A DNA stretch of 64,000 bases, taken from Butyricicoccus pullicaecorum DSM 23266. Lineage in GTDB: Bacteria; Bacillota; Clostridia; Oscillospirales; Butyricicoccaceae. Positions 9,538 to 59,401 of the stretch are shown here, one piece after another. The DNA is taken from NCBI RefSeq assembly GCF_900167005.1, contig NZ_FUXW01000002.1, forward strand, positions 372,001 through 436,000, written 5' to 3'. A program made the position numbers and the translations under genes. Below the pieces are notes generated by a model. It had not been told where the DNA came from, searched no databases, and saw nothing but the letters and a program-made list of their open reading frames with translations. Position 1 is the first letter of the stretch. Each line of letters starts with the position of its first letter.

Positions 9538-9848
9538 GTTATGCAGTGCCTTGTAAGACCGCACACCAGAAGATCGAAACGAACATCCGGACAGCCTTTT
9601 TACCAAGCCCGTTCAAAATCGGCAAACCTGTGGCACACGCAGGGTTCTGTTTAATGCTGCTCGGTTCCCCGCCTGACATGGTTCACAGTCCCACGTTGCA
9701 CAGTACCAATCTCTCATCACCGGCCTGTTAACTGCAAGCATCCAGATGCCGCACCTCCCAACCGGAATTCAGCCCTGCTATAGCGGATTGCAGGAAGAGG
9801 GCACCGCTACCGCCCCGCCTAGTGCAGCCTTACAAGACACTGCATAAC
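9538..9848 (-). ncRNA. ffs: Signal recognition particle RNA, large bacterial type (scRNA)
   Basis: About 311 bases. The 5' region has the Bacillus-type Alu-domain run GGCTGCACTAGGCGGGG then GGTAGCGGTGCCC and CAATCCGCTATAGCAGGGC. Domain IV (SRP54/Ffh site) is seen as GAACCATGTCAGGCGGGGA with a GGAA tetraloop and then GAGCAGCA. The ends form a 20-base closing helix (minus-strand 9848-9829 with 9557-9538) with a single G-U pair. SRP RNA with Ffh targets membrane proteins to the translocon. Exact ends are estimated from the helix. Confidence 0.95.
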
Positions 9849-41385: not shown

Positions 41386-42351
41386 TTACAACAAATTCAC
41401 CGTACAGGCAATTCGAATCGCCGTGCCAAGCGCTAGCATGATGAGAGACGCACCGGTCATGAGGCGCTCTGCATAGGCGATATCATTGCGTGTGATCGGT
41501 CGGTCAGGGTCACCGATGAATGGCTTTTCCATTTTCTTACCAAAGTACACGGCATCCCCTGCAAGCTGGATATGCAGCGCACCGGCACATACAGATTCGG
41601 TCTGTGCGGAATTGGGGCTCTTATGGTTTTTGCGATCCCGTCGAAAGATGCGCAGTGCATTGCGATTATCGAAATGCAGCATACCCGCGGCCGCGATCAT
41701 GCAGATTGCTGATATACGAGCGGGAATAAAATTGAATATGTCATCGACTTTTGCAGAAAATCTGCCGAAATACTCATATTTGTCATTGTGATAACCGACC
41801 ATAGAGTCCAATGTGTTGACCGCTTTATAGAGAAAACCAAGCGGAGCACCGCCGATCAGCATAAAAATCATCGGAGCAATGACACCGTCTGTCGTATTTT
41901 CCGCAATGGTTTCAACCGTCGCTTTGATGACGCCAGTTTCATCCAACGCCTGCGTATCGCGGCCAACATACATGGAAACTGCCTTGCGTCCGTCGTCTAA
42001 CGATCGTGCAAGAGCGGTATAAACATCCTTGCCGGCATCAGCAAGGCACTTGCGGGCAAAGATCTGATAGCAGAAAAAGGTGTTTGCAATAAACGCAAGT
42101 GCAGGATGAATGCGGAACAGCAAATATAACACGATGAGTGGAATAAGGAAGCTGAGACCGCACACGATGAACCATAATAGAATGCCTGCTATAAGGAGCG
42201 CGTTGGGTGTTGACGGAAAGACACGACGCAGCAGCGCTTCGGTTTTTGAAATCAGCTTGCCAATCGCGCAAATCGGATGCCAAAGATTGGCAGGATCACC
42301 AAACAGGCAGTCCAGACAAAAACCGATTAAAACCGATAAGACAATGGTCAT
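41386..42351 (-). CDS. cbiB: Adenosylcobinamide-phosphate synthase
   Basis: Membrane protein that attaches aminopropanol phosphate to adenosylcobyric acid. 321 residues with several membrane segments. Signatures CLFGDPANLWHPICAIGKLI near the start, YQIFARKCLADAG, and ENTTDGVIAPMIFMLIGGAPLGFLYKAVNTLDSMVGY in the body. The ATG overlaps the preceding short cobU-like gene by 4 bases. Confidence 0.95.
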   Translation of the reverse strand: MTIVLSVLIGFCLDCLFGDPANLWHPICAIGKLISKTEALLRRVFPSTPNALLIAGILLWFIVCGLSFLIPLIVLYLLFRIHPALAFIANTFFCYQIFARKCLADAGKDVYTALARSLDDGRKAVSMYVGRDTQALDETGVIKATVETIAENTTDGVIAPMIFMLIGGAPLGFLYKAVNTLDSMVGYHNDKYEYFGRFSAKVDDIFNFIPARISAICMIAAAGMLHFDNRNALRIFRRDRKNHKSPNSAQTESVCAGALHIQLAGDAVYFGKKMEKPFIGDPDRPITRNDIAYAERLMTGASLIMLALGTAIRIACTVNLL

Positions 42352-42731
42352 GCTTTTTTCTCCTTAATGCACTGCGCAATCCCTGCACGCAGCCAATACA
42401 CGGCATCAGCGCGCTCGGCCAGATCACAACACAATCGACCGGTTGCCTCTCTCCAATCGTTCTCCGATTTTTCAGCAGGTACGACACCGCATCCCAGTTC
42501 ATCGCACAACACGATGTGTCCGTCCAGCCGTTCCAGTAGACCGGACACAGGCTGGTTGCTCTCTAACATACGTTTGACCAGTAAGTGCAGATGATCGACT
42601 GCAGGTGCAGAGATTTCGCCAGACAACGGCATGTCTGCACCGTCGGCAAACGCATTGTCAGTTAAATGAAATGTTTTCTCAGCAAATGCACGTTTTCCCT
42701 GATAGGCGCCGCCTATAATTAAAATGTTCAT
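42348..42731 (-). CDS. Short CobU-like protein (adenosylcobinamide kinase/guanylyltransferase homologue)
   Basis: A 127-residue relative of CobU. P-loop IIGGAYQGKRAFA (about 3-15) at the N-terminus; the C-terminal half LCDELGCGVVPAEKSENDWREATGRLCCDLAERADAVYWLRAGI follows the CobU pattern NE-G-GIVP-R-G. The middle region with the guanylated histidine (about residues 40-70 of full CobU) is missing. The ATG at 42731 follows GGAGGT by 8 bases and overlaps cobS by 4; longer starts upstream lie inside cobS. The full-length cobU (43498-44037) has the P-loop but a poor GIVP motif, so the two may be complementary. Function unproven. Confidence 0.75.
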   Translation of the reverse strand: MNILIIGGAYQGKRAFAEKTFHLTDNAFADGADMPLSGEISAPAVDHLHLLVKRMLESNQPVSGLLERLDGHIVLCDELGCGVVPAEKSENDWREATGRLCCDLAERADAVYWLRAGIAQCIKEKKA

Positions 42732-43501
42732 GCACATAAACCTCCGATTACTGCGATGAGCAGCAGGAGCAGCTCGGTTGTTGAAATCAAGAATCCTGCT
42801 AAGTCGCCTGTGATTCCGCCGAATCGCTTTTGACACAGTCGCGCATGTCCAATACACCACAGGACGACCGCTGCAATACTGATTACCACCCAAATACTGC
42901 GGGAAATTACAGCTAAGGCAAGAAATGCTGCAATGAGCTCAAACAGCATTGCATGCTTGGTGCGCTCCTTTTCGCTGTTCTCTGCAAAAATATAAGCAAG
43001 TCCCGTGTTTTTTGCACATGGCAGGGATACAATCGCACGGCCACCGACGATACGCGCCAGTGTAAATCCGCAGAGCGCTAAAAATAAGTAGTTTGGTGTC
43101 TCGTAGAGCTGTGCAAACAACGCAGTTTCACACATTAAGAAGACAACCATACCCAGAACACCAAATGCACCAACATGAGGGTCTTTCATAATTTCCAGTC
43201 TGCGTTCCGGTTCGCTGTGTGAGCCTAACGCGTCTGAAGTGTCTGTCAGACCATCCAGATGGATGCCTCCGGAAATCAGTACCGGAAGTAAGGTCGCACC
43301 GATGGCGTAGAATAGCGTATTGGCCTCAAAATGCGTACAAAACAGAAACCATAGATATTGGCACGCACCAATGAGCACGCCGACAAAGGGCAGAAAACAG
43401 AGTGCATAGCGCATGGTTTTTTTATCCCATGTGAGCTGTGGCATGGGAATGAATGAATACATGGAGAATGCGACACAAAAGCCGCTCAACAGGCTGTTCA
43501 T
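42728..43501 (-). CDS. cobS: Adenosylcobinamide-GDP ribazoletransferase (cobalamin synthase)
   Basis: Membrane enzyme that joins adenosylcobinamide-GDP to alpha-ribazole (phosphate). 257 residues, about six hydrophobic segments. The family motif GGIHLDGLTDTSDALGSHSEPERRLEIMKDPHVGAFG (about 79-115) carries the metal-binding Asp residues. It overlaps cobU upstream and the short cobU-like gene downstream by 4 bases each. Confidence 0.96.
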   Translation of the reverse strand: MNSLLSGFCVAFSMYSFIPMPQLTWDKKTMRYALCFLPFVGVLIGACQYLWFLFCTHFEANTLFYAIGATLLPVLISGGIHLDGLTDTSDALGSHSEPERRLEIMKDPHVGAFGVLGMVVFLMCETALFAQLYETPNYLFLALCGFTLARIVGGRAIVSLPCAKNTGLAYIFAENSEKERTKHAMLFELIAAFLALAVISRSIWVVISIAAVVLWCIGHARLCQKRFGGITGDLAGFLISTTELLLLLIAVIGGLCA

Positions 43502-44037
43502 AAGAGGTCTGCTCCTTTCAGTGGAAGAAGAATACCGCAGACCGAGTGCACGACAATATCAGCCTTTTGCGCGAGCACGGCATTGAGCTGTGCCAGCTGT
43601 TTCATGTATTGCATGGTTTGTGCGGGATACTCGATACCATCTGAAAAAATTTCGTTTGTCACAACGACCAATGTTTGGCAGCAGCGCGGATAGAGTGAAT
43701 CGACAGCTTGAAGAATGGCAGAAACGGCTTCCTCCCCTGCCCCATCCGGGCTGAATATTTCATTGGCCAGAAGCGTTGACATGCACTCGAGCAGGATACC
43801 GTCGTACATTTTTTCAGGCAGTTCGATATGTGTCAAATCCGTGTATCGCTCTACGGTTTGAAATCCTTTTCCTGCGCGCAACGCGTGGTGCCGCAGCATG
43901 CGTGCCTGTGCCTCGGCACCAAACGGCTGCATGGTCGCTAAGTATAGCCGGCTGCCTTCACGCGCACGCTCACACAGCAAGCGCTCTGCGTGCTGAGATT
44001 TTCCTGATGCTGCACCGCCGGTCACTAAAATGAACAT
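43498..44037 (-). CDS. cobU: Adenosylcobinamide kinase/adenosylcobinamide-phosphate guanylyltransferase
   Basis: CobU phosphorylates adenosylcobinamide and transfers GMP. 179 residues, the normal length. P-loop LVTGGAASGKSQHAERLL (about 3-20), LATMQPFGAEAQARMLRHHALRAGKGFQTVER (with the region of the guanylated His), VVVTNEIFSDG, and the end KADIVVHSVCGILLPLKG. The GIVP motif usually after TNE is replaced by FSDGIEYP. Ten bases after cobT and overlapping cobS by 4. Confidence 0.92.
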   Translation of the reverse strand: MFILVTGGAASGKSQHAERLLCERAREGSRLYLATMQPFGAEAQARMLRHHALRAGKGFQTVERYTDLTHIELPEKMYDGILLECMSTLLANEIFSPDGAGEEAVSAILQAVDSLYPRCCQTLVVVTNEIFSDGIEYPAQTMQYMKQLAQLNAVLAQKADIVVHSVCGILLPLKGADLL

Positions 44038-52309: not shown

Positions 52310-53497
52310 TTACTCCAATATCTCGCGAATTTTTTTTGCAGTACGCGATACTGCGTGATGGTCGGAACCATCTGACACTAATCCAGCAATCAATCCGCTG
52401 CCTTCACAGATTGCAGGAAAATAAAAGGTACTCTCCTCTGCACAATCCGCGACGCTTACCGGAATCTCGTGCTGTTTACAGAGTGCGGCGATTTCATGAT
52501 TTACATTGCGATCATTGGTCGCGGCAATGACCAGAAATGCACCGTCAATATCTTCAGGCTGAAAACTGCGCGCTTGATAATGAATCTTTGACAAGTCGAT
52601 ATTCTGTGAAATTTCGGGGGCAATCACATGAATGTCTGCACCGAACTTTTGCAGGACACCGATTCTGCGTGCTGCAATTGCTCCTGCACCAATAATTACC
52701 ACTTTTTTTCCAAGCAGAGAGACGAACAAAGGAAATCGAGGAGGCTTCTGTACATCAAATTCTGCTAAGAGCTTTTGCTGCATTTCTTCCAGCGTAAATC
52801 CCTCTTCGCTTTGCGGACGGGCGATCATCAGTACCTGTACGCCTACCTCGCGTGCGGCCGATAGCTTTTCTGCAAATCCACCGCTCTTTCCGGTATCCTT
52901 TGTGACCAGAATCGACGCACCGGTCTTATGAAGCAGGGCGACGTTCATCTCGTGGGAGAAAGGCCCCTGCATTGCCAAAATGGATGCACCGGGGAAACCA
53001 AGTGCCGCACATTTTTGAAGCACTTCGGCTGTGGGCAGTACACGCGGATAGAGGCGCTGTTGATAATCTGGAATCGCAGTATAGGCATCTAATTCCTTAC
53101 TTCCGGTTGTGAGAAGAACTTTACTGGGTGTCTGGCAGAGCCATTGCACTGCAGCTGCTGTGTCGGGTACGATATGCACGCCGTCGGATGATTGTGCAGG
53201 TCGAACCAGACGCAGATACTGGGCACCGGAAGCTGCACAGGCCGATTTGATATTCTCGGTCACTTCGCTTGCATACGGATGGGTCGCATCGACAACCACG
53301 CAGTTTTCGTGCATCTGCTGCGCCATCTCAGTATATGAGAGGCGACCCGTGTGTATGGTAATTCCGGGCATTTTTTCCATGACCGCTTCTCCGTAGGCAG
53401 TGGCCACGTACACATGCGCCGGAATACCGTGCGAAGATAAAAACCGGCATAACAAATGTCCTTCTGTTGTACCGGAAAAAATCAGTAGCTGTTTCAT
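52310..53497 (-). CDS. cbiJ-sirC: Cobalt-precorrin-6A reductase fused to precorrin-2 dehydrogenase
   Basis: A 395-residue fusion. Residues about 1-245 are CbiJ (LLIFSGTTEGHLLCRFL, VVDATHPYASEVTENI, MQGPFSHEMNVALL, ILVTKDTGKSGGF). Residues about 255-395 are a CysG-N/Met8-like NAD-binding domain (LLGKKVVIIGAGAIAARRIGVLQKFGADIHVIAPE, LVIAATNDRNVN) which oxidises precorrin-2 to sirohydrochlorin, the substrate of CbiK. Thus one chain holds an early and a late step. Overlaps cbiH by 4 bases. Confidence 0.93.
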   Translation of the reverse strand: MKQLLIFSGTTEGHLLCRFLSSHGIPAHVYVATAYGEAVMEKMPGITIHTGRLSYTEMAQQMHENCVVVDATHPYASEVTENIKSACAASGAQYLRLVRPAQSSDGVHIVPDTAAAVQWLCQTPSKVLLTTGSKELDAYTAIPDYQQRLYPRVLPTAEVLQKCAALGFPGASILAMQGPFSHEMNVALLHKTGASILVTKDTGKSGGFAEKLSAAREVGVQVLMIARPQSEEGFTLEEMQQKLLAEFDVQKPPRFPLFVSLLGKKVVIIGAGAIAARRIGVLQKFGADIHVIAPEISQNIDLSKIHYQARSFQPEDIDGAFLVIAATNDRNVNHEIAALCKQHEIPVSVADCAEESTFYFPAICEGSGLIAGLVSDGSDHHAVSRTAKKIREILE

Positions 53498-59115: not shown

Positions 59116-59204
59116 AATTCAGAAAACGATCTGGGACCTTTGGCAGACCGTATATTCCCCTATCATCACAGCATCCGTTCCTCGTCGTTGCGTGTATATT
59201 GACC

Positions 59205-59372
59205 AAAAAGGCAGGTTTTCTGACTCTGGAATCAACGTCACATGCGGCCTTCCCGGTGTGTGTTTACCAGTGACCATATATTTGCATGCGGCTCTTCCAT
59301 TACAGCGGCGGGCCCGTTTGGGATTTTCACCCAATTCCCTTTTACCCTGTCCAAAGGCAGGCACCTCTTTGG
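59205..59372 (-). promoter_or_regulatory. Cobalamin (B12) riboswitch aptamer
   Basis: On the minus strand, in order: GGTGCCTGCC (59365-59356), GGGAATTGGGTGAAAATCCC, GGGCCCGCCGCTGTAATGG (the B12-box core), CACTG, GGGAAGGCCGC, and GAGTCAGAAAACCTGCC (59226-59210). These match the conserved blocks of the cobalamin riboswitch. The leader starts near 59395. Confidence 0.95.
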
Positions 59373-59401
59373 TGGACTGATCGTCCCATCTGATTTATTC
59401 C

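What the first reader, a model, noticed from the sequence alone, without database searches (positions are those of the whole stretch)
42348..44037. Two CobU homologues with complementary motif loss
Full-length CobU (179 residues) keeps the P-loop and the guanylated-His region but has FSDGIEYP where GIVP is expected. A second, 127-residue CobU-like protein keeps the P-loop and a clear GVVP-R-G half but lacks the middle region with the His. They flank cobS, all overlapping. A split of kinase and guanylyltransferase work between the two, or a heteromer, is an attractive and apparently undescribed possibility.
Basis: partly seen in the sequence, partly recalled or inferred. Interest (0 to 1): 0.62.

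Follow-up and report, generated by a model that had tools for sequence, protein, structure and literature searches.

The report
Two-protein CobU in B12 synthesis
In many Firmicutes one textbook vitamin B12 enzyme (CobU) is replaced by a pair of related proteins, each keeping the part of the enzyme's signature that the other has lost, so the two very probably work together as one enzyme.

Summary
The window carries a 179-residue CobU relative (F), cobS, and a 127-residue CobU relative (S), overlapping by 4 bp each, in a riboswitch-led B12 operon. It is not a local oddity. Of 291 Clostridia genomes, all 32 with an F-type CobU also have S; none of 83 with a canonical CobU does; no F genome has a canonical CobU. 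F keeps the P-loop Lys/Ser, the guanylylated His and other N-terminal landmarks (98-100%) but has lost G139, P142 and the R151-R156 helix motif (Salmonella numbering). S keeps exactly those (83-100%), lacks the His region and usually the P-loop Ser/Thr. Gene order is F-cobS-S in 71 of 73 loci. F-S gene fusions exist (Butyrivibrio, Treponema), in most checked genomes as the only CobU. Four F+S genomes lack CbiB, so would have to phosphorylate cobinamide; lineages without S keep CbiB. Best reading: F and S form one heteromeric CobU with a composite active site. F does the nucleotide and GMP chemistry; S supplies the missing loop and is probably needed for the kinase step. A clean one-activity-each split is unlikely. 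No description was found in the literature held. Physical contact and activity remain untested.

The parts
43498..44037 (-). F: full-length, motif-depleted CobU relative (179 aa)
   Evidence: ORF; Pfam CobU 111.8 bits; F-profile 225 bits in the own genome
43996..44019 (-). F: P-loop GGAASGKS, residues 7-14
   Evidence: K 100%, S 98% in F proteins
43888..43890 (-). F: His50, equivalent to Salmonella H46, the known guanylylation site
   Evidence: His in 100% of F and canonical CobU, region deleted in S
43624..43656 (-). F: NEIFSDGIEYP, the F-type loop replacing NExGxGIVP
   Evidence: position 139 is D in 93% of F; no P at 142 among its common residues; Y at 143 in 90%
42728..43501 (-). cobS, cobamide synthase, between F and S
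   Evidence: Pfam CobS 173.1 bits; F-cobS-S order in 71 of 73 loci
42348..42731 (-). S: short CobU relative (127 aa)
   Evidence: ORF; Pfam CobU 41.7 bits; model pLDDT 94.9, CobU fold Z 15.4
42690..42713 (-). S: degenerate P-loop GGAYQGKR, residues 7-14
   Evidence: Ser/Thr after the Lys in only 15 of 91 S proteins
42435..42503 (-). S: retained half DELGCGVVPAEKSENDWREATGR, residues 77-99
   Evidence: G139, P142, R151, G155 100% in S proteins
59193..59383 (-). cobalamin riboswitch ahead of the operon's first gene, cbiD
   Evidence: Rfam RF00174, 108.4 bits

Best explanation
F and S are the two subunits of one enzyme that replaces canonical CobU (adenosylcobinamide kinase / AdoCbi-phosphate guanylyltransferase). 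An ancestral CobU was duplicated and the copies decayed in complementary ways. F kept the working P-loop, the guanylylated His and the N-terminal substrate motifs. S kept the ExGxGIVP loop and the R-W-R-E-x-x-G-R helix, and lost the His region and mostly its P-loop Ser/Thr. The two associate, so that S's loop and arginines complete F's active site. F carries GTP/ATP and the GMP-His intermediate. S is most likely needed for the kinase step used in cobinamide salvage, while guanylyl transfer may be possible for F-type proteins alone. Shown here: the pair, its conservation, complementary motifs, fusions, fold, co-occurrence. Inferred: physical contact, composite site, which step needs S.
For: (1) Co-occurrence: 32 of 32 F genomes have S, 0 of 83 canonical-CobU genomes do, and no F genome has a canonical CobU (Fisher 3.5e-29, not corrected for shared ancestry). 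Outside the class, 18 of 19 S genomes have an F-type protein; the exception is a 75% complete genome. (2) S is kept even when unlinked: F and S lie on different long contigs in G317, 4 kb apart in G298 and about 8 kb apart in G350. (3) F-cobS-S in 71 of 73 loci. (4) Single-ORF F-S fusions in Butyrivibrio hungatei DSM 14810, B. proteoclasticus, other Butyrivibrio, Treponema MAGs, an Oscillospiraceae MAG and another Bacillota MAG. In 6 of 7 checked fusion genomes the fusion is the only CobU. Fusions sit at several places in the F tree. (5) Complementary motifs: K12, S13, H46, R50, T56, E58, N88 at 98-100% in F; G139, P142, R151, G155 at 100% and R156 at 83% in S; each set largely lost in the other. 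(6) AlphaFold2 of the B. hungatei fusion: pLDDT 87.2, pTM 0.78 with an 18-residue loose linker, high for two domains that do not touch (inference). (7) Position 170 is hydrophobic in canonical CobU but Glu in 95% of F and Arg in 95% of S; the window genus changes both at once, His/Tyr with Trp. (8) Kinase link: four F+S genomes, 97-99% complete, lack CbiB and would need the kinase to use cobinamide; in two of them that were opened, the operon is an ABC importer (binding protein, FecCD permease, ATPase), cobT, F, cobS, S, phosphatase. The S-less L lineages have CbiB in all five well-sampled genomes. G658 has an S-less copy beside cobS-cbiB and an F-S pair beside a transporter gene.
Against: No contact was measured: model coordinates are not returned, and pTM is only suggestive. 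Lineages L and L2 have F-type proteins and no detectable S genome-wide, so S is not needed for every function of an F-like protein; the L2 MAGs are of unknown completeness. Co-occurrence traces to one deep split in the tree, so the count is not 32 independent events. The position-170 double change is a single event. Fisher's p ignores phylogeny. L versus CbiB rests on few genomes.
Confidence: 0.68

Rival explanations
1. Clean division of labour: F is only the guanylyltransferase and S is by itself the kinase.
For: F keeps the guanylylated His; S is linked by genome context to salvage, where the kinase is needed.
Against: S has lost the P-loop Ser/Thr in 76 of 91 proteins and the whole region with H46, R50, T56, E58 and N88, while F keeps an intact P-loop at 98-100%. 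A kinase without P-loop Ser/Thr would be unusual.
Confidence: 0.1
2. F is fully bifunctional alone; S is a regulator, chaperone or scaffold, for example tying the enzyme to the membrane enzyme CobS.
For: F keeps P-loop and His; L lineages live without S; S is nearly always next to cobS.
Against: S keeps precisely the catalytic-loop residues that F lost, at 100%, which a scaffold would not require; fusions join S to F and not to CobS.
Confidence: 0.17
3. S is a decaying relic of a tandem duplication with no function.
For: Partial P-loop loss and a deletion of about 60 residues.
Against: S spans several classes of the phylum, holds invariant residues, folds confidently, persists unlinked from F and has been fused to F more than once.
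Confidence: 0.03

Closest known systems
Canonical CobU/CobP, bifunctional AdoCbi kinase / AdoCbi-P guanylyltransferase (Salmonella 1CBU, 1C9K; Klebsiella 7TM8; Methylocapsa 8YES; Akkermansia 9VIS; Pfam PF02283)
   Same: F and S both have the CobU fold, both pass the Pfam cut-off, and both sit beside cobS and usually cobT.
   Different: One polypeptide carries all motifs in canonical CobU; here they are divided between two proteins, and neither reaches NCBI's equivalog cut-off.
CobY, archaeal GTP:AdoCbi-P guanylyltransferase without kinase (PMC4626045)
   Same: Shows that guanylyl transfer without the kinase suffices in a pathway that makes AdoCbi-P directly, as proposed here for the S-less L proteins.
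   Different: CobY is described as non-homologous to CobU (PMC7242693, PMC8123684); F, S and L are CobU homologues.
RecA-like enzymes with catalytic and non-catalytic subunits sharing a site, such as F1-ATPase (own knowledge)
   Same: A degenerate P-loop partner completes the active site of its homologue.
   Different: Only an analogy of principle; no shared function is claimed.

Membership tests
PF02283 CobU family (F) | Profile match over the curated cut-off along the full length | tested here: met
   111.8 bits against 27, profile 1-167 of 168
PF02283 CobU family (S) | Profile match over the curated cut-off | tested here: met
   41.7 bits against 27, but profile 111-166 only
CobU fold (S) | Structural similarity well above unrelated RecA-like folds | tested here: met
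   Z 15.4, 125 aligned, rmsd 2.2 to 9vio_C; next families Z about 8
Canonical bifunctional CobU (F alone) | NExGxGIVP loop and R-x-FRD-x-x-GR-x-N helix | tested here: not met
   D at 139 in 93% of F; P142 not retained; R151 38%, R156 16%; below the NCBI equivalog cut-off
Canonical bifunctional CobU (F alone) | P-loop GxxxxGKS and guanylylated His | tested here: met
   K12 100%, S13 98%, H46 100% in F
Canonical bifunctional CobU (S alone) | P-loop Ser/Thr and guanylylated His | tested here: not met
   Ser/Thr in 15 of 91; His region deleted
Canonical bifunctional CobU (F plus S together) | Complete set of conserved motifs | tested here: met
   Each motif retained in one partner or the other, except N158, which only F partly keeps (57%)
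CobU activity | AdoCbi kinase and AdoCbi-P guanylyltransferase activity, CobU-GMP intermediate | not testable with these tools
   needs purified proteins
CobU quaternary structure | Trimer with clefts between subunits (own knowledge of the Salmonella structure papers, not held) | not testable with these tools
   no coordinates or complex prediction available

The most novel reading that the evidence does not exclude
The pair is a natural separation of CobU's two reactions: F-type proteins carry guanylyl transfer, and adding S creates a composite site that adds the kinase. Lineages that make AdoCbi-P through CbiB can drop S and become transferase-only (L type), some genomes keep both forms for de novo and salvage duty, and others fuse S to F.
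Probability: 0.35. Interest if true: 0.75.

Novelty: new variant of a known kind. Interest (0 to 1): 0.6.

Why it matters
CobU is taught as a single bifunctional enzyme. If the pair is right, B12-producing Clostridia, some Bacilli and ruminal Butyrivibrio and Treponema use a two-subunit form that family models would label twice as the same complete enzyme, so pathway predictions would miscount it. It also offers a way to learn which part of CobU serves the kinase and which the transferase, through natural variants: F+S, the F-S fusion, and S-less L forms.

Tried and rejected
An alignment of fusions with separate S rows misplaced S onto the F half, so the fold used fusions and F rows only. The structure papers on Salmonella CobU and the His46 paper are not held, and no text on the 2025 CobU structures was found, so the statement that active-site clefts lie between subunits rests on memory. 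Mirror-tree: r(F,S) 0.68, partial 0.59 given cobS: supportive but weak, as neighbouring genes share history. An AU test does not reject F as one clade excluding L and L2 (p 0.345), but adding the divergent pairs places the L proteins inside F, so loss of S in L is favoured, not proven. Full inter-protein covariation was not attempted: 81 pairs are too few. A spirochaete-wide census failed on its input.

Full report
What is there. On the minus strand the window reads cobT, F (43498-44037), cobS (42728-43501), S (42348-42731), cbiB, a CobD-type decarboxylase and cobyric acid synthase, with 4-bp overlaps at F/cobS, cobS/S and S/cbiB. The run of B12 genes begins at cbiD behind a cobalamin riboswitch at 59193-59383. 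F and S are both CobU relatives. They are the only two in the genome.

Complementary motifs. Aligning 95 F, 91 S and 33 canonical CobU proteins to Salmonella CobU (these sets hold a few duplicate genomes) gives a near-perfect exchange. F: K12 100, S13 98, H46 100, R50 100, T56 98, E58 98, D/E80 99, N88 100 percent. F lacks the G139 and P142 signature (D at 139 in 93 percent), and R151 and R156 fall to 38 and 16 percent. S: G139, P142, R151 and G155 100 percent, R156 83 percent, an acid at 135 in 99 percent; the region of positions 38-58 with H46 is deleted and the Ser/Thr after the P-loop Lys is present in only 15 of 91. F is not simply decayed: it has its own conserved signature (D139 93, Y143 90, E170 95 percent). 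At position 170, hydrophobic in canonical CobU, F has Glu and S has Arg; of 81 pairs 77 are E/R, and the window genus changes both partners (H/W, Y/W). That is one event and is only suggestive.

Distribution. In a class-wide sample of 291 genomes, F-profile scores are bimodal: 32 genomes at 173 bits or more. S scores over 109 bits occur in 33 genomes. All 32 F genomes have S; the one S genome without F, G270, has S near the end of a 5-kb contig. Of 83 genomes with a canonical CobU, counted by hand plus G198 by profile, none has S and none has F. Fisher's p of 3.5e-29 ignores shared ancestry. Outside the class, 18 of 19 S genomes have an F-type protein. Four of these (L176-L179) carry divergent pairs that branch outside the Clostridia F clade, so the split is old. 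F and S stay together when unlinked: G317 on separate contigs, G298 4 kb apart, G350 about 8 kb apart.

Order and fusions. F-cobS-S holds in 71 of 73 unfused loci. F-S fusions of about 308-350 residues occur in Butyrivibrio hungatei DSM 14810, B. proteoclasticus, other Butyrivibrio, Treponema MAGs, an Oscillospiraceae MAG and another Bacillota MAG. In six of seven checked fusion genomes the fusion is the only CobU; the seventh also has a separate pair. In the tree the fusions do not form one group, which suggests more than one fusion event.

Structure. AlphaFold2 gives window S a confident compact fold (pLDDT 94.9, pTM 0.88), matching CobU structures at Z 15.4 and other families at about 8. 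The B. hungatei fusion gives pLDDT 87.2 and pTM 0.78 despite a disordered linker at 181-195; I read that pTM as a sign that the domains pack together. No coordinates were available, so no contact was measured.

Which reaction needs S. CbiB with aminopropanol phosphate yields AdoCbi-P directly (PMC7242693), so a de novo producer needs guanylyl transfer, and the kinase serves salvage of cobinamide. Four F+S genomes (G269, G342, G308, G335; 97-99 percent complete) have no CbiB by two models. In the two opened, the operon is importer binding protein, FecCD permease, ATPase, cobT, F, cobS, S, phosphatase. If these cells build cobamides from cobinamide, F+S must supply both activities. In contrast, the L proteins, F-like without S anywhere in the genome, occur with CbiB in all five well-sampled genomes (G023, 78 percent complete, gave no CbiB hit). 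G658 has an L protein beside cobS-cbiB and an F-S pair next to a FecCD permease; G591 has an F-S pair beside a full importer. This points to S being needed for the kinase step. The numbers are small, and importer specificity was not tested.

Mechanism. F alone has a sound P-loop and the guanylylation His; S alone has neither His nor, usually, a sound P-loop. So S is unlikely to be an enzyme by itself. The simplest account is a composite site in which S lends the GIVP loop and arginines to F. From my own knowledge of the Salmonella structure papers, which are not held, CobU is a trimer with conserved clefts between subunits, and this fits a site shared between partners.

Evolution. The non-canonical clade is one side of a branch with 99-100 percent support. 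Divergent pairs with S branch first, and L sits inside F, so one origin of the pair by duplication and complementary loss, with later loss of S in L and L2, is the shortest history. An AU test on the smaller set does not exclude the alternative.

Known or new. Reviews describe CobU/CobP as a single bifunctional enzyme (PMC7242693, PMC8123684, PMC4626045). Searches for paired, split, truncated or paralogous CobU found nothing relevant. The library is open-access only, so absence there is not proof.

Noticed in passing
L143, L144 (Lachnospiraceae MAGs), F part at N-terminus of a 531-aa ORF: An S-less F-like CobU fused in one ORF to CobS.
   Followed up: partly
L029:420-1995 (+): CobT fused to an L-type CobU in one 525-aa ORF.
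   Followed up: no
L107-L109, L145: Treponema MAGs carry F-S fusions close to the Butyrivibrio ones, which suggests transfer between ruminal phyla.
   Followed up: no
L181 and L180/L187 (G658): One genome holds both an S-less L-type CobU beside cobS-cbiB and a separate F-S pair beside a FecCD permease gene.
   Followed up: partly
window 52310-53497 (-): A 395-aa ORF that reads like a CbiJ reductase fused to a siroheme-synthase-type dehydrogenase (by eye, not searched).
   Followed up: no
window 9559-9827 (-): Bacterial large SRP RNA, 165.6 bits.
   Followed up: no
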